A stretch of 64,000 nucleotides of DNA from positions 32,800,001 through 32,864,000 of the forward strand of contig OX485809.1 of NCBI GenBank assembly GCA_950295325.1, in the 5' to 3' direction. Origin of the DNA: Polytrichum commune (Eukaryota; Streptophyta; Polytrichopsida; Polytrichales; Polytrichaceae). The notes under the pieces are model-generated. The model searched no databases. It saw nothing but the letters and a program-made list of their open reading frames with translations, and was not told the DNA's origin. Made by a program: the position numbers and the translations under genes. Below, piece after piece: positions 6,001 through 39,569 of this stretch. Position 1 is the stretch's first letter, and each line of letters opens with the position of its first letter.

Positions 6001-7737
6001 AAGGCTTTACTTAAAAACTCATAGACCAGCCCCTCTGGGTTCCTGATTTCCCCACTATTTTCCTATATTGGGCCTAGGCACTCCACTTTCTATCACCCTC
6101 TCGGAACCGAGAGGGTGCAGAGCTATGTCTAAACCTGATACCATTTCCTAAATCTCATTCCAACATTCTTATACTAGTCCTACAAAGTCCACATTTTGAC
6201 ACCCTCTCGGTTCCGAGAGGGTGCCCAACTATGGATAATCCTTATACCATATTCTAAACTTCAATCCAGAAATTCTATACTAGTCTTTCAAAGTCCACAT
6301 TAGCAAGCACATGTAGGTTCCTGATTTCCACATATTAGCCTTAGTAAGCCTCTTACTAGACTATAGAATTTACTTAATAATCAAATATGAAGCCCCTTGA
6401 AAACCATATTTTCCACATATTATGTCTAGTAAGCATTAAACTAGACTCTAGGAGTGACTTCATAATCTAAAATCAAGCCCCTTAAGGTCCCTGATTTCCC
6501 CATATTAGCTCTTATATGCCAGAAATTTTACTCAAGGCTTGACTTCAAAACTCCTAGACCAGCCCGTTGGGGTTCCTCATTTCCACATATTAGTTCTAAT
6601 TGGCCAGAAACTTGACTCAAGACTTGACTTCATAATCAAGTATCAAGCCCCTTGAGGTCCTTGATTGCCACATATTAGTTCTAATAGGCCAGAAACTTGA
6701 CTCAAGCCTTGACTTCAAAACTCCTAGACCAACCCCTTGTGGTTCCTGATTTCCCCACCATATTCCTAAGTTGTTCCTAGACACTCCACTTTCTGTCACC
6801 CTTTCGGGTGCCGAACTATGTCTACACCTGATACCATCTTCTAAATCTCATTCCAGAAATCTCAAACTCACTTGTTCTTGAGAAGCCTTGGCCTTGGCCT
6901 TGGCCTTCGAACATGGGGATGCCTTCCTCCTTGCCTCAGCTGACCCTTCCTCTGAACTGCCGAACTCTCTCCTCCCTCCGACCTACCCTAACTCCCTCCG
7001 AACTATCTCCTCCCTCCTACCCTAACTCCCTCCGAACTCTACTAGGTCTGCGGCTAGGGTTTCCTCTCCCACTTGGTCCCCGCCTAGTCGAATGCCGAGA
7101 GCCTACTTGCGGAGGACACTATGACATTAACCTACATTTTCTTTGTCCCTCTCGGTTCCGAGAGGGTCCGTTCCTATACTACCCTCTTTCATGATGAACT
7201 CATTTAAACAAAATGAGAACTTCCTACAACTACCTGTCTGGTTAACATTCATTTTATGGGTCATTTTCCACATCCAGTCAACATGCACTTCATGAAGATT
7301 CACATTACATACCTCAATTTCAACATGTCATTTTCCATATAACCAAAATGTATATCTGACCCTCGTGCATCAAACCCTAAACCCATACTTACATTGCTTA
7401 TTGTGTCTTCTTTTGTCTCCTCCTCCGATCTGCTCGTGTCGGAATTGCTTCGTTGCTCGCTCTCTCCCATCGATGGTTCGCGTGATTCACTGTGCTCCCG
7501 TTCTTCCTCTATCCGTTCCAGCTCCTCGTTCCTGCTATATGTCCCTATCTCGTCCTCTCCGCCCGTCTTGCTCAAATCTGTTGGTGGCTCACTTCCCTGA
7601 GTACAAGTTTGCTCCTTCTTCCTAAGTTCTCTCCGTCGCCTCTGTTTAGAATTGCTAAAACTCGTGCCTCCCTTTCTTTTCTTCCTCTTTCTTCCAGGAT
7701 CGGCAGTGGAGACTTGACTATTTCCTGGTTCCTTCAT
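16..7737 (-). CDS. ParB/sulfiredoxin-domain protein of element 1 (3' part outside window)
   Basis: I infer a spliced minus-strand gene with exons at 7392-7737, 6872-6982, 1578-1694, 884-1461, 613-808, 337-533 and 16-234. It continues past the left edge. Introns are GT-AG and phases agree at every junction. The first exon has a lysine/arginine-rich tract (GRKRKKRKGG) and then a Glu/Ser-rich acidic tail, as in a nuclear protein. Exon 884-1461 carries the ParB/Srx-like motif VWEGNHRLTAW, after conserved segments shared with element 2. The remaining exons match element 2 in order; the last ends in NKASFWAQ. The methyltransferase part seen in element 2 would lie outside the window. All visible exons are open. 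ATG 7737 is the first ATG of the open frame. Whether exons 6872-7737 belong to this gene or to a separate small one rests on phase agreement in both elements, not on transcripts. Confidence 0.6.
1695..6871. repeat. Palindrome-bearing tandem array of element 1, intronic
   Basis: About twenty copies of a palindrome, CACCCTCTCGG then two bases then CCGAGAGGGTG, lie between 1.87 and 6.8 kb (e.g. 1870, 2288, 2393, 3089, 3331, 3621, 3856, 4568, 4668, 4768, 4878, 5391, 6090, 6198). One more outlier is near 7147. The middle bases are AA, TT or AT. Three kinds of unit alternate: about 105 bp (2.3-2.6 and 4.5-5.0 kb), about 145 bp (2.9-4.13 kb) and about 100-bp units mostly lacking the palindrome (5.0-6.8 kb). 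Larger blocks are duplicated: 3.02 kb recurs at 3.55 kb, and 5.37 kb recurs at 6.07 kb. The array sits between exons 6872-6982 and 1578-1694 of the ParB-type gene. Confidence 0.85.
4141..4485. other. Non-repetitive island inside the element 1 array
   Basis: This stretch interrupts the array and matches none of its repeat units. It contains overlapping short open frames on both strands (about 60-80 codons) with no recognisable motif. It may be an insertion or a surviving piece of the original intron. Confidence 0.4.
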
Positions 7738-8061
7738 GTGTGCGTCCCGGTTTCCCAATACTCGTCTCTCTCCTATCCTCTTCTATTAGGGCATCGCACT
7801 CACATAATAACTCGTTCCTTTGCTTGTATTGTTCTTTATATTGCCAGTGCTTGAGGGTTAGGGTTTCCCTATTTCAGGCAGCCGTCCCATTTTTTCCCTT
7901 TTTGGCATCCTTTCCCTATTCTTTTTATATAAACATTACTTCTACGTCTTCTGTTCCTTCGGTGATGGACATGGTGTCATCACAACGTTTGTCTTCACCA
8001 TTCTTCCCCTATATAAATCTTTGCATCTTTGTTCATTTACGTTTGTATTTTCTCTGCCTTC
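7738..8061. promoter_or_regulatory. Shared divergent promoter region of element 1
   Basis: About 325 bp separate the inferred ATG of the minus-strand ParB-type gene (7737) from the first ATG of the plus-strand transposase (8062). TATATAAA boxes in plus orientation lie at 7926-7933 and 8010-8017, the second about 45 bp upstream of the transposase ATG. The sequence is pyrimidine-rich. Divergent transcription from one spacer would couple expression of both genes; this is inference from arrangement. Confidence 0.45.
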
Positions 8062-11000
8062 ATGTCTTCTACCTCAATGGCCGAAATTCGTTCTCATGGC
8101 ATCGGCGTCCCTATTCTCTTCCCCATTGATGCACAGGGTATTGCTGTTGTCTCGGAGCGTCATCTTTGCATTAGGTTCTCTCTTCAAGCTGATACAGTAT
8201 GGGTAGAGCGTGAGATCTTCGATCCTGATACTGGATTGCTCGTTCATACCTTCCATGAGTCCTCCAAGCTAACTGACAATGGCAATGTGTGGGAGCTTGG
8301 CGCTGGACAGTATAGGGTTGTTGGCTAGCCAGATTCTGAGATGAGAGTGTCAACAGAACTCCTTGCTCCTCTTCAATCTTCCACTGCTGACTTTAGCACA
8401 CCTCCGGTAATAAGTGTCAAGTCCGAGCCTGACATAGAGAATGTTGTAGACTTGTCTGATTCTTCGACTGAAGATGTATCTGTGAAAAATGTTGCTGTTC
8501 ATGATTCCCCTTCTTTGTTTCCCTCTGATTCCTTTGTAACGCCTTCTCCTTCTCGCTCTGTGCCTTTATCTCCTTCGGTCCCATCTACCTCTAAACCTCC
8601 ACCAGTGCATAAGGCTGCTGTTCATGATTCCCCTCCTTTGTTTCCCTCTGATTCCTTTGTAACGCCTTCTCCTTCTCGCTATGCGCCTTTATCTCCTTCG
8701 GTACCGTCTACGTCCAAACCTTCACCACCTATTGTTCAATGTCTTCGTCGTCTTGGTTCTATACCCGGTAGTAAAAGTGTCCTCAAGAAAATAGATTACG
8801 ATAAAATCAAAATCCAAGAGGTTAATCACCTTCCCCCTCGTTTCGATGGTACCCAGTTATTTGTCCTCCCTGCACCAGAAGTCTCTTCATCTCAATCCAG
8901 GGCCAAGTCCATGGACGGCATGGACAAGCAATATGATGGCCATGTTTGGACGAGAACGCAAACCACCAACATCACAAACGATGTTGGCCTTGTATTTCGT
9001 TCCTCTACCTGTGTTGGCCATCTCCAATGCCAAAACCCTACTTGTGATTACCTTCAACGCGCCCATCGTATCTCTCAGGTCAACGACACGGAATTTGATG
9101 GTTTCACTACTCAGCCTTTCCCTCTCTCTGGCATTGTGCCATCCGGATCTACTCTTGTGTGCAGGATCTGCAAACAACCTCCCAAATGCATTGCACTCTG
9201 CGAGGCGAAAATTTTCTACGTCCATGGGAAGAATTTCTCCCAAAGAGCCTGCATTCATATCGGAACTCATCAACATCCCGTGAAGGTTGGAGACTGCAGA
9301 CACAGTCGGAAGCGCATCAATGCTCTTCTCGAGGAGCACGTTGAGCGTACGCCTCAAGCCACGCACAACAAGATCGTCCTTGAAGCCAGCAAGGACATAG
9401 TTGGTGAGTTCCTCCTTTCCGAGGATAGTGACATACACCGTCTCCTCTCCCTAAAGGAGCTCGAACCTGTGTTTGAGAGTTGTAGAGAGTTGAATTCCCC
9501 AAACCTTCGTTCTAAGGTTACCTCTTTCAAATTTTTGCGGAGGTTCGGTGTTATGGATGGCATCGCTAAGCTCCGAGGAGTTAGCAATTGGGCCTACGTC
9601 CAATGGAACCAATTCCCAGGACAAGGTGACGATGCCGACAAGGTGTTCGTCTTCAAGATGTCGGAGGTTGGTCCTAGAAGCGGTGTGGATTTGGTTCGTC
9701 GGATGCAACCAAGTGGGGACCTTGAGAACGCCTGGATTATGTCCGATCACGTCAAGCGGGTCAAAGGGTGGACCACCATGGCCGCTCATGTGTATGATGG
9801 GACTTATCAACGGGTCATGACCATTTCATGTTGTGATTTCCAATCGGAGGATAAGGATGCCCAAGTGCTCTTTTGGCAGAACCTCAACCACGTCATGGCC
9901 CGCCACGGTATCCCGCATCCAACGTTCATTGGCTTCATGGCGGACAGTGCGCAAGCAAATTGGAACGCTGTGCGCATTGTGTATGGTTCAGGAGATCCCA
10001 AAATTCCAATGGAGGGCCGTGAGCGTACTTGTTTTTTTCATTGGAAACAGTCGCTCGAGAAACATACGAAATCGTACATAAAGCATGAGTTACAAGACCA
10101 ACATAGACACCTTTGCCTTCAATATTGCAATGCGTCCTCTATGGCAGAGGCGGAGACTAGGTATCTAGCTATCAAGGCTTGGTGGGCATCATCGAATTGT
10201 ACAAGTGAGGACGGTCTCAAACACCTCCAACTCTGGCTTGCTTTCTGGCACTTCCGCTACCTTCAATGGGGTGGTTTCATGGAATTGGTACATCCCCTTC
10301 ATGCTTCATTATTCTTTTTTCCTGGATTTAGTTTCCTCTCTTTGTGCTCCCTCTAATACTCCCTCTGCACTCTCCAATCAGGAAAAGGTTCTGACTCAAG
10401 ACCAGTTGGCCGAGATGCCGTCGTGCAATCTTGCGGAGTCCGTCCACAACAAGTGGCTTCAGGCATCGGGCAACAAGGGTGGAGATTTATACGTGGCTAC
10501 GGTGGACGACTACATTCGCGCCTTCCTACAAGTTGTTGCATACTACACATTCCTTAAAGGTGGTATTGGCGGAGATGGTCCAAGCAAAGAAGAACTCAAG
10601 CTCAGGGGTGCTCAACGTCGAGCTCAGCGTACTGGCGACCCCACAGTGTTGCAGAAGGTCTTGCTCGACATGCCCGGTGGGGAAGAGTTTTGCACTCGCG
10701 ATCCCCACCTTGAGGGCGCCGAGGTGTTTGGATCGCAGAAGCGAAGACCAAACACTCCAATTGGTGATGATGGCGAGACCCACCGTCCCGATACCGTGAA
10801 CTTCTCTCGCCCTCCCCCCGGTAAGCGAGTCACTCGCTCTCAACCTGCATCACTGCCTACTATCATTGAGGAGTCTTCCCCCTCTATACAAGAGGTTCAA
10901 GTGCCTTCACCTGCAGGACTTGGTTTCCAGCGTGTCACCGCCGTGCAAGAAACCAAAGTAGATGTCTCTCTTTGGCATATTGCTCGCATACCCTATACTT

Positions 11001-11823
11001 CTGGGAAGTCTTGTTGGGCTAATCATGCGGGCATGAAAAAACAATGCACCGCAAGAATCGTCACCCATAACAAGAGCGTCCCTGCGCCCACCTACACCGG
11101 TATGTGGCATCATTACAAATTCCAATCTATGAAGCGCACGGATTTCGTCTTCTGCCCGGACGACATAGAGCGTTGCGTAAAGGGCCCTCGTCGGAAATGG
11201 GTCATGCCGTTCTTTGATGGTAAAGAGAAACCTCCCATTCCCCCAATTTGGCCCGTCAAGATTGGTACCAACCTCACCCGTTCGGAGATCTTCACCCTTG
11301 AGAACGCAGGTTTTCAACTCCCACCTAAGGAGCGCATCTCACCGACTCCGCTCCCCCCCTGGATATGTCTGGAATCCGTATTCCGGAATTCCCAGACTTC
11401 ATCCCTCCGACAAGATTGTCCAAAGTTGTTCGGCGATGCACCAGCGCACCTTCGGCAAAGCAGAGGCAGATGGTTGCCTCTGCTGAAGCTATGCATGGTA
11501 CTGTTCTGAAGTTAACTATGATCCCTCAACCGGGATTTGGTTGCATTATCTCACTGCAGTCCAAGTCAGAACCCCAACCCCCCATATACCAGGTGACAGT
11601 GAGTTCTTATCCAGAGTGCAATTGCGCGAACTTTGTGGATATGATTTCCAAGTTCGGCCGCAAACGCAATTCTTATCTCAATTGTAAGCATTTGTATTAC
11701 ATCTTCATCAAGGTTTCTAATTTAGATCCAGAAGTGAATTTGTTCATTCATGCCCCGACATTTAGCTTCAATGAAGTCAAACTCATCCTCGAAGGGGGTC
11801 TCTTGACACAACCTACTTCTTAG
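8062..11823 (+). pseudogene. MULE transposase of element 1 (nonsense plus frameshift)
   Basis: This is a Mutator-like transposase, which cuts and rejoins DNA at element ends in the nucleus. ATG 8062 or 8076 (MAEIRSHG, the start conserved in element 2) opens a roughly 85-residue N-terminal domain of unknown family. A Ser/Pro-rich linker with a 40-residue tandem repeat follows. Next comes a Cys/His region like the WRKY/GCM1 zinc folds of MULEs (CVGHLQCQNPTCDY, CRIC, then HIGTHQHPV). The DDE core shows D in VYDGTYQRV, D in MADSAQANW, the CFFHW motif and E in CNLAESVHNKWL. The C-terminus has an intact SWIM finger (CNC ... CKH, near 11,620-11,690). One intron is 10,288-10,381. Breaks: in-frame TAG at 8326-8328 where element 2 reads through, and a frameshift near 11,350-11,365 at a run of seven C. 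Either could be a sequencing error; if neither is real, the gene would be complete. Confidence 0.8.
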
Positions 11824-12527: not shown

Positions 12528-12989
12528 GCGTCTATACAAGACTCTAACTTATGTCCTAATATATATTGAGTTCGAAGATAATGTCTTCGACCACAAACAA
12601 TAATTGTTCGACTCACACATAGGACAAAGACAAAAGTAATAGAATAAAATCGGAGCAAGTTGGCTGACCTTTATATTTTTATTGACTCATTCTTCAATTA
12701 TACAAACTTCGATATGCTTATTTTTGTTTGTTCTTTCCATGGATCATCATTGATGTTAATCATATACTTATACGTTTTATTTTAATGCTATTTCATTTTA
12801 GCACTTCCCGGTTCCGAAATGTAATGAGACCATTTCAAATATAGGGCCTTGTGAGTTAGATTTGGACCTATACATTCCACGGAAATAGGTCAATATTTTT
12901 TTACTATTTTTAGTATATTCTGGAATATTCGAAGCATATTCCAGTCTTTTAAAAAATCTAAATTTGGTCTAAGAAGTTTGCTAAATTTA
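12528..12989. other. AT-rich sub-terminal spacer of element 1
   Basis: No gene or clear repeat is visible. A stretch near 12,885 (CCACGGAAATAGG) resembles one near 29,195 in element 2, consistent with both being sub-terminal element sequence. Confidence 0.35.
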
Positions 12990-13060
12990 ATCACTCTCTG
13001 CTATCCGCTCTCCACATCACCGCTCTAAGCTCTTCGCTCCCCGCTCTACGCACACATACA
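12990..13060. repeat. Right-end iterons of element 1
   Basis: On the minus strand this reads as 7-bp-spaced copies of GAGCGG/GAGCGA/GAGCTT, the same design as the TGAGCGG iterons at both ends of element 2. A TAAATTT-containing flank is also shared. It is probably the transposase-binding end of element 1. Confidence 0.5.
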
Positions 13061-13209
13061 AGTGTCGTCCTGGTATTGACCCATATTGTTTGACTTTTTC
13101 TCAACTTGTAATACTAGCCTCAACTTGTACCAAACATATGAGTGGCATAGAAATTTTAATATCATTGTTGATAATTTGCATAGATACCAAGAATTTGTGG
13201 CATCCATGT

Positions 13210-13218
13210 AGGTTGAAG
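13210..13218. repeat. Left target-site duplication of element 2
   Basis: AGGTTGAAG, identical to 29,410-29,418. Nine bases is the usual MULE target duplication. The tenth base (G) also matches. Confidence 0.85.
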
Positions 13219-13275
13219 GGGGGAGTGCTATCTTGTGAGCGGTGAGCGATGAGCGGTAATTTGTGAGCGGTGAAG
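13219..13275. repeat. Left terminal inverted repeat of element 2
   Basis: It starts with GGGGGAGTGCTATCTTG and continues as TGAGCGG, TGAGCGA, TGAGCGG, a spacer, then TGAGCGG. Further GAGC motifs continue to about 13,475. It pairs with the right end at 29,325-29,409. Confidence 0.75.
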
Positions 13276-13888
13276 AAAACAAAATATTTGGTAATAGGAC
13301 CCCGAATATCCTATAACCGTGGCCTAAAGAAATAATTTTTTAGGGTTCAATAATAAGAAGATTGGGGAGGACAAATAATATGAATGCTAGATTGCAAGTA
13401 GTGAGCAATGAAAAAGACCAATATGTACACGACTCGGGGTTGCTAGTATGTGAGCATGCGAGCGTGAACATGTGAGCCTTCAATTTTTTCCCGGTTATGG
13501 TTTGTAAATCCGTTGGGGGCCTATGACTGTGGAATTACATGTAAGGGTCTATAGTCCAAATGAACAACAAATGAGAATGTTGCTATAACAATTTTGTACT
13601 AAAAAATGAACTAATATACATTTAATTGTTGAGATAATAATAATGTAATTGGAGACAATGTGTAAGCAAACTCATGTTGAAAACAAGTGTAGCATGTTAG
13701 AATGTCTCACTATAATACACATCAATGTAAAATTTATATACATCATAACACCATCATGAGGGTGACATTTACGAAGTCCAAAACATAAAGAACAACAAAA
13801 ATGGATTGTAGATATAAATCGGGTAGTAGATTAAAATTGTTGAAGTTCTTGGAAATCAAATTTCAAAAATCAAATCATGAATACAAAC
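13276..13888. other. Left sub-terminal region of element 2, no gene seen
   Basis: AT-rich sequence with scattered GAGC motifs at 13,395-13,475. It would hold the 3' UTR of the methyltransferase gene. No other gene is supported. Confidence 0.4.
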
Positions 13889-16800
13889 TTAAATATCGTC
13901 GGACTCAGATGCACTGAGTTCAAAATAAGTACATATTCTAGTATCGTAATATCTACGAGGTGAAGGTGAAATTGAAGGTGAAGTAGATGAAGCATTAGCA
14001 TAAGCTTCAGCTAAAGCCTCAGCATACACATGGAGGCTCTGAGGACTAAGAGAGGGGCTTCTCAATAATCCACGGTGCCGATAAAATGACGAGATTTGTA
14101 TCGGCGATGGATTCATCCAACTACAAACAACAAACCATGTATTAGAATATGTAACAACAAATTAGAATACAAAATCTAGAATTTGCAATTGAAGTTGTTG
14201 AGAAAAAAACAATGAAAAAACTTACTCACATATGTTAAGAAGTGCGGCGTTTTCTATTGGAGTATCATCATCAAAGTCCATACCATCGTATGAGGTATTA
14301 TTTGTAGGTGTTTGAAGAGGTTTTAGTACCTCATCAAAGAGTTCGGCATCACTTTCTAATGCTAGAATATGACGATTGGATGAATGAGCCGCTCTAATAG
14401 AAGAACCTGGATGAAGCAAAACATTAATTAAAAAAAAAACGAATATTGAAGTATGAATTAAAAAACATATGAACGAATAATTGGATACTGTAATATATAA
14501 TACCTGTAGAAGCAGTCATGTCTGCCACAATACCGCCTACAGGACTCAAACCATGAACAAATAACTTCATTAAAACTTCAGACTTCTCCTTTGCACCCCT
14601 CCATGGCTTGCCATCTCTTTGTCTACATAATTGAGTTTCCATAGTAATAGAGTTGAAGAGAACGTCATTTGTGGCTAAATCGACCTCAGGAATTGAAGGA
14701 TGCATGGTGATCAGAAGTTCTTGAGGTTGCCTCGCAATGGGAATTGAAAATGATCGAACCAATAACAAAGCCTTGAACTTCAAAGTCTGAAAGTCAATAT
14801 AAAATTAAAATTAAAAAATATACAACACATAAAAACAAATTCAAATATGAACCAATCAAAATGAAATGTCATAATTGCTACTTACATTTTTGGACGGATT
14901 CATAGGATTTGCCAAGTGCAAGGAATTAATGATAGTCCACTCATCCTTGAATTTTGAACTTATAGTTCTTGAAGAATCCTGCCACTTCTCTCTTCACGGC
15001 AGAACTGTCAGGATAAAACAAAAGGAATGCTTCATCATCATGAAGATAGGTAAGAGCAAATGCCATCAATATGTTGAGAAAACTTGGAATGTTGGCATTC
15101 CAAGGGGGAATTTGAGATGGCGGATCCGAGACACCTGGAACCCGAAGACCATCTGGGTAATCCGCAATAATGGGGTCCACAACAGGTTTCTTTTGCAATT
15201 GGCCATCAAAAAAAAATTGTCTACCTTCACCAACCTACAAAGATAAAATGTAAATATTACAATTCATGAATAAAGACGACAATTAAAAATAAAAAATGAA
15301 ATAATGTAACAAAATACGAGTGAAACTTTATAAAACTTGAATAAAGTAAAAACTGTAAAATAAAATGAACTCACCTTTGATAGAAAAGCCACAATGTCGT
15401 CATATGGTGCACGAAATGTACCTGTTTGCTTCTTATCCTCGATAATCCTCACAAAAGAATCATTCAAGATTAAATCCGAAGATGTATGATTTGCAGGTAA
15501 AGGAGGCAAGATATTCATCATACCTCTAAGCTTGGAAGGCATATCCAAGGTAGGAGAAGGGGTTGTTTTCTGCCGCTTTGAAGTATGAAACGTTGCCTCT
15601 AGATTTGAAGAAGGTTCAGTAACTACAAGGTTGTTGAGACTGCTTTGAATTGGAGCATCCTCATCGCTATCATGAATGAGGAGGATTGGTCTTTTAGGCT
15701 TAGACTTTCTTTTTTTGGCATTTTGGCTGCATCCTCATCCATTTAGAGGGAACAATTTTAGTTGTACCCTTGAGGGCGGGTTGAATGGAATCTCGAAGGG
15801 CAATATCAAAAGTGGGAGGTGATTTAAGAGGACAATCCAAATACCACCCACATTTTTTTAAATGCACAGGATCCCAAGATTTCATGATCCCCTCTGTGAA
15901 CATGCATTCTTCACTTTCGATATCCAAATAATTAGCCAAAAAAATGGGAGATTTGGAAATGGTTTTCGCAGGAAATAAGACATATTTGAAGTACCTATAA
16001 AACACCCTTCGCATGGCCGGATAAAAATTGAGTTGCTTGTCAATGTTATGATTTTTGTGAACTCCCTTATTCACACCGAATTCACGAAAAAATGCAGTAT
16101 CCCACAATGATATGCGCATTGCTTCCACATAATCAAAAATAGTGGGCAAAGGATCCATACTATTTGGAAGGTAGTTGATGGACACATGCATATCAGCCAC
16201 AGTAGCATCAAAGAGCTTCTCGGTCTCAATAGCCAACTGCCAAATACAAAATAAAAATTAGAAGAATTAAATGATTGAAAAAATATTAAAAATAAATTAA
16301 AAACATAGACCAAAAATAAATGAACCAAACATAATAGAAGGACAAAAATTATCACCTGAGCCCACCAAGTAGCTTTATGAAGCCACTTAGGAAACTCTAT
16401 ATCATTGAATTTTGGTTTTGGAAACTTGAGAGCCTCACGAAGAGCAGGTGAACTGTTCCACCTCTCAAGCCACTTAATCTTCATAGTTGTGTCCATTGCC
16501 AAAGTTGCTAACATCCAAAGTTTTTCTTGAGTCATCTTAGGGTTCTTATCGTGAGTTTCATAATGAGACTTCACCTGCTCTAAGAACATAGGAGAATGTT
16601 TAGGATTCGCAATGGGAAGTTGTTTCTTCAATTCCGAATGAGAAGTCAATCTCACCCTCTCAATAGCTTTGGAAACAAATTCATCTACTGCACTCGAAGT
16701 CCAATGCGCAGGATCAGGATATTTCTCATAAAATTTCCTTTGAGCAGTAGCAGCAGTATCTCCCAACTCTTGCTACACCAACGAAAAAACATATAAGAGT

Positions 16801-17984
16801 ATGAATAATCACACACTACAAAAATAAGATGCAATAGAAAATATAGTTATAGAAATCGAAATAAAAAGAAAACAAGAAAAATATACAAGAAAACAAAAAT
16901 CGTGAAAAACAAATACTTCAGAAAAAATAACCTGGTATAGAAATCCATTAAGAGCCTCAACAGTCAAAGTAAACCAAGTCCTATGTTTGGATTTTTGTTT
17001 CGCATCAGCGGTAGTAAGATCTTCTTTGGAAACAAGTTTCTCAAAATATGAAAGTGGTTGTCCAGCAATGCTTTGAATGCGGAAAAGCTTATGAACAAGA
17101 TTGGTATAAACATGGGGATTTTGGTTCCTCCTGTCAAAACAAAACATCCAATGATAAGCCAATGAAAAGAGATATACAATAAAAAAAAAACTAAAAAAAA
17201 AACCAAATGAACCGAACAAATAAAATGAGAAGAATGAAGTAATTACGAATTGACTTCACGTAAAGCTGCCAACATGGTTGCAATATCTCCTTTGACGTCC
17301 AAAATAATACTTTCAACAGCATAATGCCAAACCGGATCATGTGTGTGATCTCGATTAATAATGTGCAACCATGCTTGCAAACGGTGATTTCCGTCCCACA
17401 CCATGAACATTTTGCCAGAAAAAACTTTGATTTCCTCATCAGCTTGCAATATTTTTTCAAAGGCATCATTAGCCCTCACCCAATTTTCACTCCAAGATTC
17501 AATGATACTATCGGTAACATCTACTGTTTTCCCCTCATTGTTTTCCAAGGCCACATAAAAAACCCCATTGCCCTCCATATAACCACAAACAATAAAATGT
17601 GCAGCCAGGTTCATAACGTCATTTTTAAAAAAAAGCGTTACAACAGGCAATGCAATCATTCGACATAGTGGAATGTTGAGTTTTATTTTGCCCTTGGTTG
17701 ATACCTCAACCATTCAAGATGGGAAGATGTGTTGACAGTTTCTTTCTTAAAAAATGCATGCAATTGCACCTCCAATTGATCTTCAGAAAGAGGTACAACT
17801 TCCAAATCTAAAGCACAAAATATATCACACATTTGATAAACAAAAATAAATCAAAAGAAATATATACATAGGAAAGAAATCACATATGCAAACTAAAACA
17901 AAATGAAAAAACATTAAAGAAAGTAAGAGCATACATAAGAGAGAAAACCACATATTCCCCAAAAGTCTAAATTTTGAATATGGG

Positions 17985-20900
17985 TGGCTGTTAACGGCCA
18001 CTCTTCTTGGAGAAAAAAAAATGAAGTAAATGAATGCATACACACATGCATGCATACATGTAAAAACAAAATTTGAAATATGAATAAGGGTGGCCGTTAA
18101 CGGCCACCTTTATTGAAGAAAAAAAAAATGAGAGAAATGGGTGTATACATGTAGAAAGAAACCCTTATGAACAAAAATCTGAAATGAGAATAAAGGTGGC
18201 CGTTAACGGCCACCCTTATTGAAGGAAAAAAAAATGAGAGAAATGGGTGTGTATATGTAGAAAGAAACCCTTATGAAAGAAAATCTGAAATGAGAATAAG
18301 GATGGCCGTTAACGGCCACCCTTATTGAAGGACACAAAATGAGAGAAATGGGTGTATACATGTAGAAAGAAACCCTTATGAAAAAAAATCTGAAATGAGA
18401 ATAAGGGTGGCCGTTAACGGCTACCTTTATTGAAGAAAAAAAAAATGAGAGAAATGGGTGTATACATGTAGAAAGAAACCCTTATGAACAAAAATCTGAA
18501 ATGAGAATAAAGGTGGCCGTTAACGGCCACCCTTATTGAAGGACACAAAATGAGAGAAATGGGTGTGTACATGTAGAAAGAAACCCTTATGAAAAAAAAT
18601 CTGAAATGAGAATAAGGGTGGCCGTTAACGGCTACCTTTATTGAAGGAAAAAAAAATGAGAGAAATGGGTGTATACATCTAGAAAGAAACCCTTATGAAC
18701 AAAAATCTGAAATGAGAATAAATGTGGCCGTTAACGGCCACCCTTATTGAAGGACACAAAATGAGAGAAATGGGTGTATACCTGTAGAAAGAAATCCTTA
18801 TGAATAAAAATCCGAAATGTGAATAAGGGTGGCCGTTAACGACCACCCTTATTGAAGGAAAAAAAAATGAGAGAAATGAGTGTGTATATGTAGAAAGAAA
18901 CCCTTATGAAAGAAAATCTGAAATGAGAATAAGGATGGCCGCCCTTATTGAAGGACACAAAATGAGAGAAATGGGTGTGTACATGTAGAAAGAAACCCTT
19001 ATGAAAAAAAATCTGAAATGAGAATAAGGGTGGCCGTTAACGGCGACCTTTATTGAAGGAAAAGAAAATGAGAGAAATGGGTGTAGACATGTAGAAAGAA
19101 ACCCTTATGAAAGAAAATCTGAAATGAGAATAAGAGTGGCCGTTAACGGCGACCTTTATTGAAGGAAAAAAAAATGAGAGAAATGGGTGTAGACATGTAG
19201 AAAGAAACCCTTATGAAAGAAAATCTGAAATGAGAATAAGAGTGGCCATTAACGGCACCCTTATTGAAGGAAAAGTAAAATAAAAAAATTGGTATATACA
19301 TGTAGAAAGAAACCCTTATGAACAAAAATCCAAAATGTGAATAAGGGTGGCCGTTAACGGCCACCCTTATTGAAGGAAAAAAAAAATGAGAGAAATGGGT
19401 GTGTACATGTAGAAAGAAACCCTTATGAACAAAAATCCAAAATGTGAATAAGGGTGGCCGTTAACGGCCACCCTTATTGAAGGAAAAAAAAATTGAGAGA
19501 AATGGGTGTGTACATGTAGAAAGAAACCCTTATGAAAAAAACATCCGAAATGTGAATAAGGGTGGCTGTTAACGGCCTTCCTTATTGAAGGACAGAAAAT
19601 AAGATAAATGAGTGTATACATGTAGAAAGAAACCCTTATGAAAAAAAATCTGAAATGAGAATAAGGGTGGCCGTTAACGGCCACCCTTATTGAACGAAAA
19701 GAAAATGAGAGAAATGGGTGTGTACATGTAGAAAGAAACGTTTATGAAAGAAAATCTGAAATGAGAATAAGAGTGGCCATTAACGGCCACCCTTATTGAA
19801 GGAAAAAAAAGAAAAAGAAATGGGTATATACATGTAGAAAGAAACCCTTATGAACAAAAATCCAAAATGTGAATAAGGGTGGCCGTTAACGACCACCTTT
19901 ATTGAAGAAAAAAAAATGAGAGAAATGGGTGTGTACATGTAGAAAGAAACCCTTATGAAAGAAAATCTGAAATGAGAATAAGAGTGGCCGTTAACGGCGA
20001 CCTTTATTGAAGGAAAAAAAAATGAGAGAAATGGGTGTGTACATGTAGAAAGAAACCCTTATGAAAGAAAATCTGAAATGAGAATAAGAGTGGCCGTTAA
20101 CGGCGACCTTTATTGAAGGAAAAAAAAATGAGAGAAATGGGTGTGTACATGTAGAAAGAAACCCTTATGAAAAAAAATCTGAAATGAGAATAATAGTGGC
20201 CATTAACGGCACCCTTATTGAAGGAAAAAAAAATTAAAAAATGGGTATATACATGTAGAAAGAAACCTTTATGAACAAAAATCCAAAATGTGAATAAGGG
20301 TGGCCGTTAACGGCCACCCTTATTGAAGGAAAAAAAAATGAGAGAAATGGGTGTGTACATGTAGAAAGAAACCCTTATGAAAAAAAAATCCGAAATGTGA
20401 ATAAGGGTGGCTGTTAACGGCCACCCTTATTGAAGGACAGAAAATAAGAGAAATGGGTGTATACATGTAGAAAGAAACCCTTATGAAAAAAAATCTGAAA
20501 TGAGAATAAGGGTGGCCGTTAACGGCTACCTTTATTGAAGGAAAAAAAAATGAGAGAAATGGGTGTATACATGTAGAAAGAAACCCTTATGAAAAAAAAT
20601 CTGAAATGAGAATAAGGGTGGCCGTTAACGGCCACCCTTATTGAACAAAAAAAAAATGAGAGAAATGGGTGTGTACATGTAGAAAGAAACCCTTATAAAA
20701 GAAAATCTGAAATGAGAATAAGAGTGGCCATTAACGGCCACCCTTATTGAAGGAAAAAAAAGAAAAAGGAATGGGTATATACATGTAGAAAGAAACCCTT
20801 ATGAACAAAAATCCAAAATGTGAATAAGGGTGGCCGTTAACGACCACCTTTATTGAAGAAAAAAAAATGAGAGAAATGGGTGTGTACATGTAGAAAGAAA

Positions 20901-22685
20901 CCCTTATGAAAAAAAATCTGAAATGAGAATAAGGGTGGCCGTTAACGGCGACATTTATTGAAGGAAAAGAAAATGAGAGAAATGGGTGTAGACATGTAGA
21001 AAGAAACCCTTATGAAAGAAAATCTGAAATGAGAATAAGAGTGGCCGTTAACGGCGACCTTTATTGAAGGAAAAAAAAATGAGAGAAATGGGTGTAGACA
21101 TGTAGAAAGAAACCCTTATGAAAGAAAATCTGAAATGAGAATAAGAGTGGCCATTAACGGCACCCTTATTGAAGGAAAAGTAAAATAAAAAAATTGGTAT
21201 ATACATGTAGAAAGAAACCCTTATGAACAAAAATCCAAAATGTGAATAAGGGTGGCCGTTAACGGCCACCCTTATTGAAGGAAAAAAAAAATGAGAGAAA
21301 TGGGTGTGTACATGTAGAAAGAAACCCTTATGAACAAAAATCCAAAATGTGAATAAGGGTGGCCGTTAACGGCCACCCTTATTGAAGGAAAAAAAAAATG
21401 AGAGAAATGGGTGTGTACATGTAGAAAGAAACCCTTATGAAAAAAAAATCCGAAATGTGAATAAGGGTGGCTGTTAACGGCCTTCCTTATTGAAGGACAG
21501 AAAATAAGATAAATGGGTGTATACATGTAGAAAGAAACCCTTATGAAAAAAAATCTGAAATGAGAATAAGGGTGGCCGTTAACGGCCACCCTTATTGAAC
21601 GAAAAGAAAATGAGAGAAATGGGTGTGTACATGTAGAAAGAAACGTTTATGAAAGAAAATCTGAAATGAGAATAAGAGTGGCCATTAACGGCCACCTTTA
21701 TTGAAGGAAAAGAAAGAAAAAGAAATGGGTATATACATGTAGAAAGAAACCCTTATGAACAAAAATCCAAAATGTGAATAAGGGTGGCCGTTAACGACCA
21801 CCTTTATTGAAGAAAAAAAAATGAGAGAAATGGGTGTGTACATGTAGAAAGAAACCCTTATGAAAGAAAATCTGAAATGAGAATAAGAGTGGCCGTTAAC
21901 GGCGACCTTTATTGAAGGAAAAAAAAATGAGAGAAATGGGTGTGTACATGTAGAAAGAAACCCTTATGAAAGAAAATCTGAAATGAGAATAAGAGTGGCC
22001 GTTAACGGCGACCTTTATTGAAGGAAAAAAAAATGAGAGAAATGGGTGTGTACATGTAGAAAGAAACCCTTATGAAAAAAAATCTGAAATGAGAATAATA
22101 GTGGCCATTAACGGCACCCTTATTGAAGGAAAAAAAAATTAAAAAATGGGTATATACATGTAGAAAGAAACCTTTATGAACAAAAATCCAAAATGTGAAT
22201 AAGGGTGGCCGTTAATGGCCACCCTTATTGAAGGAAAAAAAAATGAGAGAAATGGGTGTGTACATGTAGAAAGAAACCCTTATGAAAAAAAATCCGAAAT
22301 GTGAATAAGGGTGGCTGTTAACGGCCTTCCTTATTGAAGGACAGAAAATAAGAGAAATGGGTGTATACATGTAGAAAGAAACCCTTATGAACAAAAATCC
22401 AAAATGAGAATAAGGGTGGCCGTTAACGGCCATCCTTGTTGGAGGAAAAAAAATGAAGCAATTGAGTGCATACACGAAGAAAAAAACACATATGGAGAAG
22501 AGTCTGAAATTTCAAGGACAAAAAATTTAAGGAAATGTGTATATATTTGAAGAAGAAACACATATATTCAAAAATATAAGATGCAACAAAGGGTGGCCGT
22601 TAAGGGCCACACTTTTAGATGAAACAGACTACAACTCAGAAGTGGGCATCATAGAAAGGGTGGCCGTTATCGGCTACCCATTTGG
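17985..22685. repeat. Roughly 111-bp satellite with 32-bp palindrome, intronic
   Basis: Roughly 40 head-to-tail units of about 111 bp. Each is centred on GTGGCCGTTAACGGCCAC, which in good copies extends to a perfect 32-bp palindrome (arms AATAAGGGTGGCCGTT and its complement). The rest of the unit is AT-rich with an A-run and CATGTAGAAAGAAACCCTTA. Some units have decayed arms (e.g. GGCGACC, GACCACC). The last two, near 22,590 and 22,660, are degenerate. The array lies between exons 22699-22864 and 17247-17807 of the ParB-methyltransferase gene, whose phases join correctly. Confidence 0.9.
18955..22340. repeat. 1,905-bp higher-order duplication in the satellite
   Basis: A block beginning near 18,955 recurs 1,905 bp later, with the same order of unit variants to about 20,430 and 22,340. 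This is about 17 monomers. It shows recent segmental duplication inside the array rather than unit-by-unit homogenisation. Confidence 0.8.
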
Positions 22686-23819
22686 AAGACAAACACACCT
22701 TCATTTGAGTCGCTTTCCGGAGTTGCAGCTTTTTTGTCGCTCTTGCTCGTTTTGTCTATCTGCCCACGTCGCTGCCTGGAACTTGTACCAGCGTCTGCAT
22801 CCTCCATGGTGTGCGCTCTTGCTGCTTGTGTATGTTGTTGCCGCCGCACTTCGAAAGAGGATGTCTGAAGACATTACGAAGAGTATGGCTTCAAGAGATT
22901 AGGGTAAGTCGGACTCTAAAAAAAAAAAAAAAAAATGGTAGATTTCAGTCTATGGAATCTTTACTATAATTTTTTCAAATATCCTAATTAATCTCCACAA
23001 AAAATCTAGTGCATAGATTTAAGCCTTGCCATTCATTCAATTTTTTTTTCAAGATTATTGGAGATAATTTCAATTTTACATAAATCGTCAAAGTCTACTA
23101 AAACTAATATGGTTAGATTTCCTGCATAAAATCTTCATGTTTTGAAGATTTTAGAAGAATCTAAGATGTTCTAATTGTTTTTTGGCTCTAAAACATGCAA
23201 AATAAAATTATTTTGTTCATGCTATATACCGTTGGAATCGCATTTTCGGTGTGCACAATATAGTATACATTATATACCTCTAAATTTATTTTTATTTTAA
23301 ATTTCTTCTCTTATCATTTCTTTCGTTCAACTTACCTCCAATTCCGCCTCAGAAGATTGTTCTTCTTTTTCGTATTGTGTGGCTTGCTCTTCGTCGATGT
23401 CTTTATCATAATCTTCTTCGTCTTCCTCCTCTTGATCTTCTTCATTGCATTCAGAGACGATATATGGTTGAGATTCACATGTAGGAGTTTGGTGTTCGAA
23501 GACATCTTCCGTTATCATTTCGCATGCCACAATATCTTTGTACGTCAAATTCCTTGTTGTACATGATAGGTCCACTCCTTTCATTCGAGGAATACGTCTA
23601 TTCATTCTAGCCCTTAACAATTATCTCTTACTTGAAAAACGAAAGCTATTTTTTCGCCTACTTTTTTTTCTACCCTTCACTGGAGTAACCACTGCTAACA
23701 TGAATAAATGACGTTCTTTTATATTTAAACGCATTCAGCTACCCTCTGCACTACATTGTTACTCTTAACAACATGCATTTCATGGATGTTAATAATGATT
23801 CGGCCACTAAATTTATGAA

Positions 23820-23943
23820 CTCCAAACAGAAGCCACGGTCTCAGCATAGATAGGGAGGCTTCGTGAAGGTGATGGACTTGCTAGAAATTTTGGTTCTTCA
23901 AAAGAAGATCGCCAACGTCACATTACTACCACCTGACAACATA
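23820..23943 (-). other. Stray copy of the methyltransferase last exon
   Basis: On the minus strand the frame reads SPSPSRSLPIYAETVA. This resembles SPSLSPQSLHVYAEALA of the last exon at 13,889-14,120, and an AG acceptor-like site precedes it. It lies upstream of the inferred first exon, so it is a displaced fragment or the tail of another gene copy. Confidence 0.5.
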
Positions 23944-24898
23944 GATGTGTTAATACCCATCATAATCCAACTAAATACATACATAATATAATACAAATAA
24001 AAATTATACAATCAACCATATGAATATTTCGAACAAGATAAACAAACAACATCTTGTTAAGGAATACATAGCAAAATAATTTCAAATCAAACAATTTCAG
24101 AAGCTGACTTACCTTTTTGTTTCTTCTGTTTTGTGAACTCGTCTTCATTTCCGACTCCGAAATACCATCGTCTGCATGCTCTCTGCACCTTCATCGTCCT
24201 CCGCCTTCCTATGTCTTCTCTTCTGCCTCACTAGCGTTCTCTCTACATGTTCCACTATCATTGCTGTCTATGATATATCTTCTACCACTTCACTTTCATA
24301 CATTTATTTAGTGTTTAGAGCTCACTTAAACCTGACGCACATTACGATCATCAGTGTTGCAATTGGCGTCCAATGATTAAGTTGTTTTAACGCGTCTTTC
24401 ACTATGTTTCTATTTTTATTATATCCGCCAAATTTATCTGATATCCCAACCTACCACATTGACTTTGTTCTATTTATAATGGCCAATCATTTACTTTGCC
24501 GGCCAATTTTAATTGTTCCTGCATCTACATCCAGCCTATACAATCGTATTTTAAAACTCTGCCAACTTGTTTATTATTTGACACCGTTTTCTCCATGATA
24601 TCCGTGCCCGCATTTCTCCCCTGTGATAATCTTATATTAGACAACTCCTTTGTGGGTTCAAGTTTCCTATGGCTTAGTTTCTAAAGGAGATATTTTTTGG
24701 GATCTGGTTTAGGATTCTATGTCTTCATTGCAAATATTATCTGTCTACTATTATGATCTGTCTCCTTTTGTATTATTGGATGCTATGGTATCACCTTTTT
24801 TTATTTACATCCATTATTATATTCTCCATCATTCAATACAAAAGCGATGTTGATTTAAGATTATTGTCATGTGTTGTTTATCTTTTCCTTCTTCTCCA
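23944..24898. promoter_or_regulatory. Divergent spacer upstream of element 2 transposase
   Basis: This AT-rich spacer precedes the transposase ATG. A minus-strand piece at 24,111-24,200 ends in a good donor (AAAAAG then GTAAGT) and encodes basic residues (SQNRRNKK), so it may be a further 5' exon of the ParB gene. No clean TATA box was identified. Confidence 0.3.
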
Positions 24899-27800
24899 TG
24901 GCTACCATTAGAGCTCACGGATCTTTTGTTCCCTTCATTTTGCCACTTCAAGATGATGGTCATGTCAATGTCTCAGAGGATTTGCTTAGTCTGAGATTCA
25001 ACCTCCAGATAGGAACCATGTATTTAGAGCAGGAGATGTATTCTGCAGATGGAGAGGTGTATGAAACGGTTTTGGTTCAAAAAAACAACACCGAGGTTGG
25101 TTTTATGTGGATCTTAGGACCTGGTTCATTTAGGGTAATAGGTCTTTCTGAATCTCAGATGCAAGCTTCAACAATCATCTTGACAAACGAATCCGGTACA
25201 TCCACCGTTCAAATTTCATATGTCGCACCTGTTAAATTTGAACCCATTGATGACCGTGTGTTTGTGCTATCAAATTCGGAAGATGACATTTCTGCATCTG
25301 TTGATATTTCAAACACATCGCCGTTTCCATTTAAAAGTCTTCATTCCACTTCTTCACAGCTTCCTATACATGTAGCCAAATCTCCATGCGGTCCTATGTA
25401 CAAGAGTTTGGTTCCCAGCTCTCACATTCTCAACGTCCTCCACTACACCCTTCACCTTCATCTATAGGGTTGACTATCGTTGATGCTTTGAAGCTTACAA
25501 AGTCTAGAAGAAGATCAAAGTCAAATCTTGCATCCATTGATTTTGATAGTATAGATGTTCATGATGTCAAGTACTTACCATCTTCTTTTAATGGTGATGT
25601 TTTGTTTCTCTTATCCCCTGTGACACTTAAAGCTCTAAGTACGTATGGCCGCTCAATGGACGGCATGGACAAGATGTGCGACGGTTACCCTTGGTGCACC
25701 ACCAAAACCACCAATATCCAAAATGATTTTGGATTGTCCTTCTGGCGCTCCACTTGTGCTGGTCATCTCCAATGTCCTAATGACTACTGTGATTACATGA
25801 ATCGCAATGGGGGCCTCCGGAACAACACTGAATGGGCCGGTTCAACTCCTCTCCCATTTGTTGTGGGTAATGTTCCTCATTCTAGGTCCACTGTCGAGTG
25901 TAAGGTATGTCGTTCCACATCTGTGTGCATTGCTTTATGTCATGTTCGAATCCTATACATCCATTCCACATCTGTTGGAATGTCCAGGGCTTGCATTCAT
26001 ATTGGTGTACATGATCACCCTGTGGCCAATGGCACATGCCGTGAGTCATTGGACATGGCATACCAGTGCGTTGCAAATAAAGTATTGAAAACACCCACAG
26101 CCAAAAATTCAGCCATAGTTATGGCAGCAAGCAAACAATTCTTGGCCGATTACCTTCTCAAATCTCCCGCAAATGTCGAAGGCCATCACTTGTTTGGTTC
26201 ATCCCTAGAGGTCGTCATGGACAAATTCAGCACTTTTGCGTCCCTGAATTGTCGTAACTTTGTATCCGGATCAAAGCGTTTTTTGCGTAGTGGAATGGGA
26301 ACTATGGATAGTATTATGGCATTCAAAGACCACTCTGCTTTCAAGTTCGTCCATGGTAGTTGGTTTCCAGGGCAGTCAAAGGACAAAGTGTTTGTTTTCA
26401 AGATGTCTGTAGACCTTCCAGGTAGTGGTGTGGAGCTTGTGAAGAGGATGCAAGTCGGTGGGGACATGGAGAATTCATGGATTATGTTTGACCATGTCAA
26501 ACGTTTGAATGACTGGACGACCATGGCTTGCCATGTGTACGACAGTCGATACTATAAAGTGTTGACTATTGCGTGTTGTGACATGCAATCTGAAGATGGT
26601 GCAGCACAAATTCTCTTTTGGGAAAATTTGAATAATGTCATGGCAAAAAATGGTGTACCAAACGTAAACTTCAAAGGGTTTATGGCTGATAGTGCTCAAG
26701 CTAATTGAAATGCGGTGAGGGCGATTTACGAGGATGGTGATCCAAGTCTACCCATGGTTGCACGTTAGCGTATATGTCTTTTCCATTGGTCTGCGAGCTT
26801 GGATAAGGTGATCCAAAAGTATATCAAACCATCCTTGCAGTTTCAACACAAGCAAATATGCAAGGATTACAAAGACGCAAAAACGATGGACGACGCCGAG
26901 ACTAAGTATCATGTTATTTGTTCTTAGTGGTTGTCATCCGGAGCTGCCTCAGAAGAAGGCATCCTTGGCCTTTTAGAGTGGTTGGGTTTTTGGCACTTTC
27001 GTTACAAACAATGGGGTGGTCATATGCTATTTGTAAGTACATATCAAATTTCATTCTTCAATGTCATTCATTTTTCTTCCACTGTTATATATATCTTCTA
27101 TTTTTCTTATCCTCATATTTGTGTGTTGTTCATAGGATATGACAATAGAAGAACGTGCGGAAATGCCAACATGCAACCTTGCAGAGACTGTACACAACAA
27201 ATGGCTCCAACAGTCCGGCAACAAGATAACTTGTTTATATGAAGCTACAGTGGACGAGATGATTCGTGCCTTCATGCAAATTGCAAATTACCGGACATGG
27301 TTGAAAGGGGGGTCTGATGGTAAAGGTCCTGATCCGGCATCCTTGAAACTCAAAGCGGCTGCCAGGTGTGGAGATCCAGAAATATTGGCCGATGCCATGA
27401 AGTCTTATCCAGGGGCAGAAGACGTCAATATGAGAGATTGTGCATTGGAAGGGTCAGAGCTCTTTGGTTCCACCAAACGCAAACTCAACCTACCACCGGG
27501 TGCTGATTGTGACTCTCATCGACCCGACAAAGTGAACTATTCCATTCCTCGTCCCAACACCCGAGCAACTCGTCAACGCATAGAAGAATCGTTGAGTTCT
27601 GCAATTCATGGTATGGCTCATACTACATCCGTGTTAGAGACTGATTGTCTTGCTTCTAAGTGGCACATTGCAAGATTGCCACCCAACTCAGCCAAACGTT
27701 GTTGGGCACTGCAGGCTATTACAGGGACTATGTGCAATGCCAAAGTCGGGACTGGGAAACATGACACACCTGCTCTAACATACAAAGGGCTCAGGAAGGA

Positions 27801-28503
27801 ATTTCGCTCTCCCAACAATGTGGAGTATGAATTTTGGTTTTGTCCTGATGACATCAAACGTTGTGTGAGTGGCAGTAAGAAGAAATATGTGTTGGATTGG
27901 CCTATAGTACCCAACACGTGGCCAGTGAAGATAGGTACCAATCTATCGAGAGAGGAGGTTTTGGCACTTGAAGATGCTGGATTTCAACTACAGCAGAGGG
28001 AGGCAAGGTCTCCTCGTCGTAGGCTTTCAACAATCGCAACTCTTCCCATTCCTCGCTCGCATTTTTCTATGTCACCAAACCCAGACGCCCACCCTACATT
28101 CAGATTTGGGAAGACAGTTTGTTGTAATCCAACAGCATCTCTGGCGGATCACAAAAACAAATGGGAGAGCGCCGGACTCATGGAAGGTTACTATGTGGTT
28201 GGGGTCACTGCCATTCCATATCCGAGCTTTGGAGTGATAATCAACATTGTTTCCAAGCAGGATATCACCTACCATGTCACAATTGGCGATATCCCGCATT
28301 GCACATGTCCAGATTTCACGAAAATGTCCTCTCATGCATTGGGAAAGAAAGGAAAATGGGTGTATTATAAACATCTTTATTATGTGTTTAGATTTTTGTG
28401 CAAGGTGGATTACGAGAGTGATAAGTTCATTTATGCACCTACATATACCTATAATGAGGTCATGCGACTACTTGAACTTGCTGGTATTGTAGAATGTGAG
28501 TAG
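24899..28503 (+). pseudogene. MULE transposase of element 2 (multiple stops)
   Basis: It has the same architecture as the element 1 transposase: N-terminal domain starting MATIRAHG, a Cys/His region (CAGHLQCPNDYCDY, then HIGVHDHPV), DDE core (D in VYDSRYYKV, D in MADSAQAN, E in CNLAETVHNKWL) and a C-terminal SWIM region. The intron is 27,033-27,135 with good GT-AG ends. Breaks: a frameshift between 25,386 and 25,467, and in-frame stops at 26,706, 26,767 and 26,926. Two of these stand where element 1 has Trp, as expected of G-to-A change. The SWIM finger has Tyr in place of the third Cys (CTC ... YKH), again one G-to-A step. It cannot encode full-length transposase. The sequence remains easily aligned to element 1 along its whole length. 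Confidence 0.85.
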
Positions 28504-28639
28504 TATTGCAAGTGTTCTATTAAGCAACATATATTTGAATGTCAATAAATGACATGTTTTGGTTTGGATTATTATAATAAAAATTAGCAGTGGACTGAAA
28601 GTATTTCAAATGATTCAGTAACTTCATTTTTATTTAGAC

Positions 28640-28965
28640 TGCGACCCAACCATGTGTGGTTTGATTGATTCACATGGATAAATAATAACACGTTTCTAAA
28701 AATAATTAATAGTTAAGAAGATTCTACGCACATCCGCGTAGTAACGTCTTCTTGGTATCCGCCTATAGATTATTCCTGCTTTATCACTAGCTCAATTTGG
28801 GATAGCACCAGTCAATGTAACCAACCGGATTCGAACCCGGGTTGATCTAGACCTAATACCAGTCTCTTACACAACTTGCATCTACAAGCGGATGTCTCAA
28901 AACCTAGTAGCTACCTACATATTCACTATTTCTAATATATAATTTTCTTTCTTTTGTAGATTATG
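28640..28965 (-). mobile_element. Possible tRNA-derived SINE or tRNA-like fragment
   Basis: On the minus strand GGGTTCGAATCC (28,832-28,845) is a perfect RNA polymerase III B box, and TAGCTACTAGG near 28,915 is a weak A-box candidate. The T-arm does not pair fully, so this is not a functional tRNA gene. It separates the transposase 3' end from a duplicate of that end. Confidence 0.3.
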
Positions 28966-28969
28966 GGCC

Positions 28970-29200
28970 TTTATTCAACCCGTGAGCAGTTTGAGTGGCT
29001 CACAATTATGGCACCGACATATATGTATAATGAGGTTATGCACCTACTTGAATTTGCTGGTGTTGTAGAATGTGAGTAGTTGTACAAGTGCTAGTTGTAG
29101 CTACATGTATAAGGATGTCAATATATGACATGTATTGGTTTGAATTATTATAATAAAAATCAGCAATGAATTGAAAGTGTTCTAAATGATCCATGGAAAT
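28970..29200 (+). repeat. Duplicated 3' end of element 2 transposase
   Basis: The stretch containing TATAATGAGGTTATGCACCT and the following stop and 3' flank repeats 28,430-28,620 with about 10-15% difference. The reading frame ends in the same residues (GVVEC versus GIVEC). It is a non-coding tandem remnant. Confidence 0.8.
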
Positions 29201-29324
29201 AGGGCCCTTTCACTTGTGCTTCATTTAAAATATTGGCAATTTATAATTGAAAATATGCAATTAATTTGTCAAAATTTTGGTTGTAAACCCTAAACCCGTG
29301 TGTCTTTACTAAATTTGGATTCAT

Positions 29325-29409
29325 TGCTCATATGTTACTGCTCATTGCTCATGTGTTACTGCTCACCGCTCACCGCTCACTGCTCATCGCTCATAAGATA
29401 GTTTCCCTC
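29325..29409. repeat. Right terminal inverted repeat of element 2
   Basis: Reverse complement: GAGGGAAACTATCTTATGAG, then a run of TGAGCGA/TGAGCAG/TGAGCGG iterons interrupted by TAACACA and TAACATA. It pairs with 13,219-13,275. Confidence 0.75.
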
Positions 29410-29418
29410 AGGTTGAAG
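29410..29418. repeat. Right target-site duplication of element 2
   Basis: AGGTTGAAG, identical to 13,210-13,218. Confidence 0.85.
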
Positions 29419-39528: not shown

Positions 39529-39569
39529 CTTAAACTCCTTCGCAGACTTCCCCAAGTCACTCAGCCTGC

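What the first reader, a model, noticed from the sequence alone, without database searches (positions are those of the whole stretch)
13219..29409. Large plant MULE carrying a ParB-methyltransferase gene and a palindrome array
A complete element with a 9-bp target duplication and inverted ends encodes, besides a MULE transposase, a ParB/Srx-methyltransferase fusion. A second, diverged element (1-13.06 kb) has the same order. Conservation across diverged copies argues that the cargo belongs to the element and was not picked up once. I know of no described MULE family with this set. It may be a self-marking or self-segregating transposon; that function is inference.
Basis: partly seen in the sequence, partly recalled or inferred. 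Interest (0 to 1): 0.92.

Follow-up and report, generated by a model that had tools for sequence, protein, structure and literature searches.

The report
Plant jumping gene carrying DNA methyltransferase
A 16-kb plant jumping gene carries, besides its transposase, a bacterial-type gene that joins a ParB-like domain to a DNA methyltransferase and sits beside a long array of palindromes, so it may mark its own DNA to escape silencing; similar proteins are already known from algal transposons.

Summary
Window 13219-29409 (16,191 bp) lies between a 9-bp target duplication and imperfect inverted ends. It has a minus-strand ParB/Srx-methyltransferase gene, a 44-core palindrome array of about 106-bp period and a plus-strand transposase. 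A diverged second element (about 1-13.06 kb, left part outside the window) has the same visible order with a different palindrome. Structure prediction puts the first domain in the ParB/sulfiredoxin fold and the transposase core next to ISCth4 (IS256-type, from recall the bacterial cousins of MULEs). The methyltransferase rests on profile matches to its SAM-binding half in one decayed copy; its catalytic motif is unsettled. Relatives are abundant: 351 ParB-exon and 84 transposase clusters. Protein conservation at near-saturated synonymous divergence argues for long co-residence, not one-off capture. Both window copies are broken. [quoted passage not shown] What looks new is a land-plant MULE carrier with a gene-proximal palindrome array. 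I favour a VANC-like, array-addressed anti-silencing factor (inferred). Self-segregation is not supported. Genome-wide co-occurrence could not be tested.

The parts
13210..13218 (.). left copy of the 9-bp target site duplication AGGTTGAAG
13219..13256 (+). left inverted end, rich in GAGCGGT-like units
14049..17807 (-). ParB/Srx-methyltransferase gene of the complete element, about 8 exons seen, about 972 codons (the very N-terminus is uncertain); three apparent frame breaks in A-runs
   Evidence: exon layout read by eye; tblastn back to the window
17246..17695 (-). ParB/Srx-fold exon with the conserved GKMFxVW(E/D)GNHR motif
   Evidence: 351 clusters; G 118, N 119, H 119, R 114 of the 120 listed; fold modelled on the second element's exon, with this one in the alignment
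14225..15234 (-). methyltransferase domain exons; motif I GGIVADMTASTG abuts the intron at about 14.5 kb; putative motif IV SDPPSQIPPW
   Evidence: phrog_3008 E=1.6e-5, phrog_6952 E=7e-3, phrog_67 E=0.03; PF01555 E=0.015, below its Pfam cut-off; motif IV by eye
17977..22684 (.). array of 44 palindromes, consensus AATAAGGGTGGCCGTTAACGGCCACCCTTATT, about 106-bp period
24898..28503 (+). MULE-type transposase gene (decayed: stops where relatives have W, and a frame break)
   Evidence: consensus of relatives
29372..29409 (-). right inverted end
29410..29418 (.). right copy of the target site duplication
883..1392 (-). second element: ParB/Srx-fold exon, 40% identical to that of the complete element; downstream exons run to window position 1
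1870..7168 (.). second element: 19 cores CACCCTCTCGGnnCCGAGAGGGTG in at least four unlike flanks (by eye); none elsewhere in the window at 5 mismatches or fewer
8077..11823 (+). second element: transposase gene (an in-frame stop in its first exon where relative P0001 reads W)
   Evidence: core 8743-10275 modelled
12985..13075 (-). second element: probable right end, with GAGCGG-like units resembling the ends of the complete element in a local alignment without control; exact end not fixed

Best explanation
This is a large MULE-type cut-and-paste transposon of a land plant with two long-resident, divergently transcribed genes: a transposase, and a ParB/Srx-fold protein fused to an amino-type (N4/N6) DNA methyltransferase. 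Proposed working (inferred): the ParB-MTase binds, probably as a dimer, the element's own palindromes, which lie just upstream of its gene in the divergent intergenic region, and methylates DNA there, so that the array and both promoters stay open despite host 5mC/RdDM silencing. The array would be a family-specific address, as with VANC proteins of Arabidopsis VANDAL elements; the palindrome differs between the two elements, as expected if binding specificity and array diverge together. Shown: element ends, gene layout, predicted fold of the ParB and transposase cores, a methyltransferase SAM-binding half, conservation, arrays. Inferred: binding, base modified, anti-silencing outcome.
Against: Within the 44-core array the palindrome is hardly better kept than the rest of the unit (0.93 for the 32-bp palindrome, 0.92 for its 22-bp core, 0.90 for the rest), only 2 cells show a symmetric change, and many units have lost symmetry (up to 21 of 44 at one pair), so selection on symmetry is not shown there. 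The putative catalytic motif reads DPPS, not the usual DPPY/F/W (recalled), in the single decayed copy visible, so activity is open. No Pfam ParB model matches. ParB Foldseek E-values are modest: best 0.02, none at or under 0.001. No sequence or data link the protein to the array. 4mC in rotifers accompanies silencing, not its opposite (PMC8885841, abstract).
Confidence: 0.42

Rival explanations
1. The ParB-MTase is an autorepressor or copy-number controller: it binds the array at its own promoter and limits expression of both genes; methylation is lost or secondary.
For: The array begins about 0.2 kb upstream of the first coding sequence seen of the ParB-MTase gene in both elements (by eye); KorB, described as a transcriptional repressor, is among the fold matches; motif IV is atypical.
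Against: A methyltransferase half with a recognisable SAM-binding region is retained. Dozens of sites over about 5 kb are more than an operator needs (inference).
Confidence: 0.2
2. The methyltransferase couples transposition to replication or marks copies, as Dam methylation does for Tn10 (recalled): hemimethylated ends or arrays are preferred by the transposase.
For: An element-borne DNA methyltransferase next to a transposase; palindromes suit symmetric methylation (inference).
Against: The palindromes are central, not at the ends; the ends carry a different repeat, GAGCGGT-like units.
Confidence: 0.12
3. The array is a transposase-binding or purely structural (expanding satellite) region, and the ParB-MTase acts elsewhere.
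For: Plain tandem expansion explains the uniform 106-bp array and its lack of selection on symmetry.
Against: Both elements have unlike palindromes at the same place, and in the second element one core lies in several unlike repeat units.
Confidence: 0.15
4. Passive gene capture (Pack-MULE-like): the ParB-MTase was picked up once and has no role.
For: MULEs capture gene fragments often (PMC6431247, passages); both window copies are decayed.
Against: Constraint between deeply diverged copies; GNHR kept in 114-119 of 120 relatives; 351 clusters.
Confidence: 0.06
5. Partition or segregation system.
For: ParB/Srx fold plus a palindrome array recall ParB-parS.
Against: An integrated nuclear element needs no partition (inference); no ParA match in the 17 of 19 large ORFs scanned; the fold is equally that of sulfiredoxin and SbnI.
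Confidence: 0.03

Closest known systems
Sola1-1_Ec32 giant transposon of Ectocarpus with a ParB-MTase (PMC12477816, passages read), and the green and red algal cases it cites (Iyer 2011 and Petroll 2025; neither read; the second is not held)
   Same: ParB-like domain plus N4/N6 methyltransferase in a protein of about 1000 aa (1104 there, about 972 codons seen here), encoded opposite to the transposase of a giant DNA transposon
   Different: Sola-1, not MULE; brown alga, not land plant; no palindrome array is mentioned in the passages I read; sequences not compared
VANDAL elements with VANC anti-silencing proteins (PMC5735166, passages; PMC10398659, abstract)
   Same: An accessory protein beside the transposase and short binding motifs in tandem repeats of noncoding DNA, with motif and protein diverging together
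   Different: VANC is not described as ParB-like or as a methyltransferase in what I read; its motif YAGTATTAY is not a palindrome; homology not tested. That VANDALs are MULEs is recalled
ISCth4 transposase (IS256 type; its kinship with eukaryotic Mutator is recalled)
   Same: Predicted catalytic-core fold
   Different: Only about 8-11% sequence identity in the structural alignments; eukaryotic N- and C-terminal parts
N4CMT of bdelloid rotifers (PMC8885841, abstract and outline)
   Same: Bacterial-type amino-methyltransferase acting on eukaryotic transposons and tandem repeats
   Different: Host gene fused to a chromodomain, serves silencing
TET/JBP-carrying DNA transposons of fungi (PMC12730594, listing and start of abstract only)
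   Same: DNA transposons that carry a DNA-base-modifying enzyme
   Different: Oxidase, other transposon lineages

Membership tests
MULE (Mutator-like) superfamily | about 9-bp target site duplication next to inverted ends | tested here: met
   complete element only
MULE (Mutator-like) superfamily | IS256/Mutator-type RNase H-like core with D, D and E | tested here: met
MULE (Mutator-like) superfamily | Pfam MULE/Transposase_mut match above cut-off | tested here: not met
   no such match in 45 relatives at E<=1 (45 of the 84 were scanned); best is PF00872 at E=0.038, 13.3 bits against a cut-off of 21, for L001, with a chance family (Beta-lactamase2, E=0.07) close behind. I read this as a limit of the model and say 'MULE-type'
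MULE (Mutator-like) superfamily | C-terminal SWIM zinc finger (CxC...CxH) | tested here: inconclusive
   pattern visible by eye in L001 and the second element; no Pfam SWIM match at E<=10
ParB/Srx fold superfamily | fold | tested here: met
ParB (CTPase clamp, parS binding) | CTP binding and parS-type HTH binding | not testable with these tools
   only the N-terminal fold was modelled
amino-type (N4/N6) DNA methyltransferase | SAM-binding motif I region | tested here: met
   one copy only
amino-type (N4/N6) DNA methyltransferase | catalytic (D/N/S)PP(Y/F/W) motif | tested here: inconclusive
   DPPS in the one decayed copy; motif recalled, found by eye
transposon ParB-MTase accessory proteins (Ectocarpus Sola1 kind) | ParB plus MTase in one gene opposite the transposase | tested here: met
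   against the description in PMC12477816
transposon ParB-MTase accessory proteins (Ectocarpus Sola1 kind) | sequence homology to the algal proteins | not tested
VANDAL/VANC | VANC homology and demethylation of targets | not tested
   only the layout was compared with the papers
Pack-MULE | captured host fragments and no transposase of its own | tested here: not met
   transposase gene present, though decayed; conserved cargo

The most novel reading that the evidence does not exclude
A land-plant transposon family that writes its own non-5mC mark (4mC or 6mA) on a private palindrome array, addressed by a ParB-fold domain, to shield itself from host silencing, with array and protein co-diverging between families.
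Probability: 0.3. Interest if true: 0.88.

Novelty: new variant of a known kind. Interest (0 to 1): 0.62.

Why it matters
It extends transposon-encoded ParB-methyltransferases from algae to a land-plant MULE-type element and pairs them with a concrete candidate target, the palindrome array. That makes the open question 'do transposon-borne methyltransferases mark their own element, and does the mark fight or serve silencing?' testable by calling base modifications over two kinds of array. It may also bear on the contested reports of 4mC and 6mA in plants.

Tried and rejected
Pfam gave no ParB or MULE assignment for single sequences, for 97 ParB-exon members or for 45 transposase relatives. In one search three of 97 members matched DndB at E<=1 (best 0.0059) and two DUF6551, which is suggestive, but unrelated families such as RMP1 (6 members) matched as often. 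NCBIfam gave chance-level hits. PDB by sequence gave nothing useful. tblastn in phages: chance hits. Viral contigs: none. GTDB genomes: none for ParB, one locus, L001, for the transposase. The whole 972-aa protein had no relative at E<=1e-3 among the 7994 scored candidates; I think because the database holds exon-sized ORFs, since the exon query found 351. A conserved third gene between array and transposase was looked for and not found.

Contig lengths as fingerprints: P0053 (transposase) and P0138 (ParB) both list a longest contig of 674,632 bp, so probably one contig, but its size makes this weak evidence. Of 18 transposase and 17 ParB contig lengths over 50 kb only this one is shared. The ParB list was typed by hand: 70 of the 120 listed rows, the rest being contigs under 50 kb.

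CpG: observed/expected runs from 0.34 (second element's array) to 0.89 over 13 stretches, with 0.58 for 29.4-64 kb; no pattern that I can use. A paper on 6mA across eukaryotes (PMC12695648, passages) has no occurrence of 'moss', 'land plants' or 'Physcomitr'.

Literature: listings shown were 2 of 2 papers, 20 of 31 (15), 20 of 100 (17), 20 of 25 (18), 1 of 1 (24), 20 of 25 (77), 10 of 92 (84), 12 of 126 (96), so absence from print is weakly tested.

Full report
What is there. The element at 13219-29409 (16,191 bp) is flanked by AGGTTGAAG at 13210-13218 and 29410-29418; that 9-mer occurs nowhere else in the window on either strand. Its ends are imperfect inverted repeats that share CTATCTTRTGAGCGRTGAGC and run into GAGCGGT-like units. 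The window has no N. From the left: a minus-strand gene of about eight exons seen (about 17.81 to 14.05 kb), an array of 44 palindromic cores from 17982 to 22679, 33 of 43 spacings being 105 or 106 bp, and a plus-strand transposase gene at about 24.90-28.50 kb. The second element (about 1-13.06 kb) shows ParB exons, an array and a transposase in the same order and orientation; its left end and methyltransferase exons are outside the window. tblastn with the ParB-MTase and a transposase relative finds no further copy of either gene in the remaining 34.6 kb at E<=0.01. A FAE1_CUT1_RppA gene (PF08392, E=1.1e-71; from recall, 3-ketoacyl-CoA synthases of plants) fits a plant host; the species was not identified.

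Decay. Both transposase genes have stops or frame breaks where relatives read through, and the ParB-MTase gene has three apparent frame breaks, each in an A-run, which could be decay or sequencing error. In 40 of the 44 palindromes tabulated, 56 of 82 changed cells are C-to-T or G-to-A (my count; cells, not events), as expected of formerly methylated DNA (inference).

Cargo or passenger. Between the elements pS is 0.73 for the ParB exon and 0.81 and 0.78 for two transposase exons, while pN is 0.42, 0.40 and 0.40 (146, 433 and 346 codons). Both genes were thus held by selection during a long joint divergence. This speaks against one recent capture. It does not prove that every copy carries both; the survey that would do so needs the host genome, and the genome search did not answer 14 identical requests.

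The arrays. In the second element one core, CACCCTCTCGGnnCCGAGAGGGTG with nn = AA, TT or AT, occurs 19 times (0-3 mismatches outside nn) in at least four unlike flanks from 1870 to 7168 and nowhere else in the window at 5 mismatches or fewer. That is what a binding site looks like. In the complete element the palindrome is part of an ordinary tandem repeat: it is hardly better kept than its surroundings (0.93 against 0.90), with 2 symmetric changed cells in all and symmetry lost in up to 21 of 44 units at one pair. So the case for a binding site is good in one element and neutral in the other. Both arrays use units of about 106 bp; the second element also has units of 76 to 170 bp. Both begin about 0.2 kb upstream of the first coding sequence seen of the ParB-MTase gene (by eye).

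How it may work. I favour an element-specific DNA-binding and DNA-modifying protein that keeps its own element expressed, as VANC does for VANDAL elements (PMC5735166, passages; PMC10398659, abstract). Binding, modification and outcome are all inferred. A self-repressor, a replication-coupled mark, or an array that serves the transposase are live rivals. Partition is not.

What is known. [quoted passage not shown] it proposes that they may bind and modify their own transposon. I saw no MULE or land-plant case in the listings, which are capped and cover open-licence papers only. [quoted passage not shown]

Noticed in passing
23330-23620 (-) and 7300-7758 (-): Charged minus-strand ORFs lie between array and transposase in both elements but are not alike; could be exons of a further gene, or upstream exons of the ParB-MTase gene with the array in an intron.
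   Followed up: partly
28435-28617 and 29011-29193: The 3' end of the transposase region is duplicated within the complete element (82% identical).
   Followed up: no
43728-45349: Twelve copies of a 136-bp tandem repeat, 93% alike, in the flanking DNA; holds a 150-codon minus-strand ORF.
   Followed up: no
L001 (CADCWO010000080.1), 1-4101: A contig filed in a GTDB cyanobacterial MAG (AVDCRST_MAG81) encodes this eukaryotic MULE-type transposase in two exons: probable contamination.
   Followed up: partly
38698-39555 (-): FAE1_CUT1_RppA gene (PF08392), pointing to a plant host.
   Followed up: partly
proteins P0159 and P0164: Two different ParB-exon proteins list the same longest contig length (344,070 bp), so several copies of the family probably share one contig.
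   Followed up: no
1751-7200: The second element's array is the most CpG-poor of 13 stretches compared (observed/expected 0.34).
   Followed up: no
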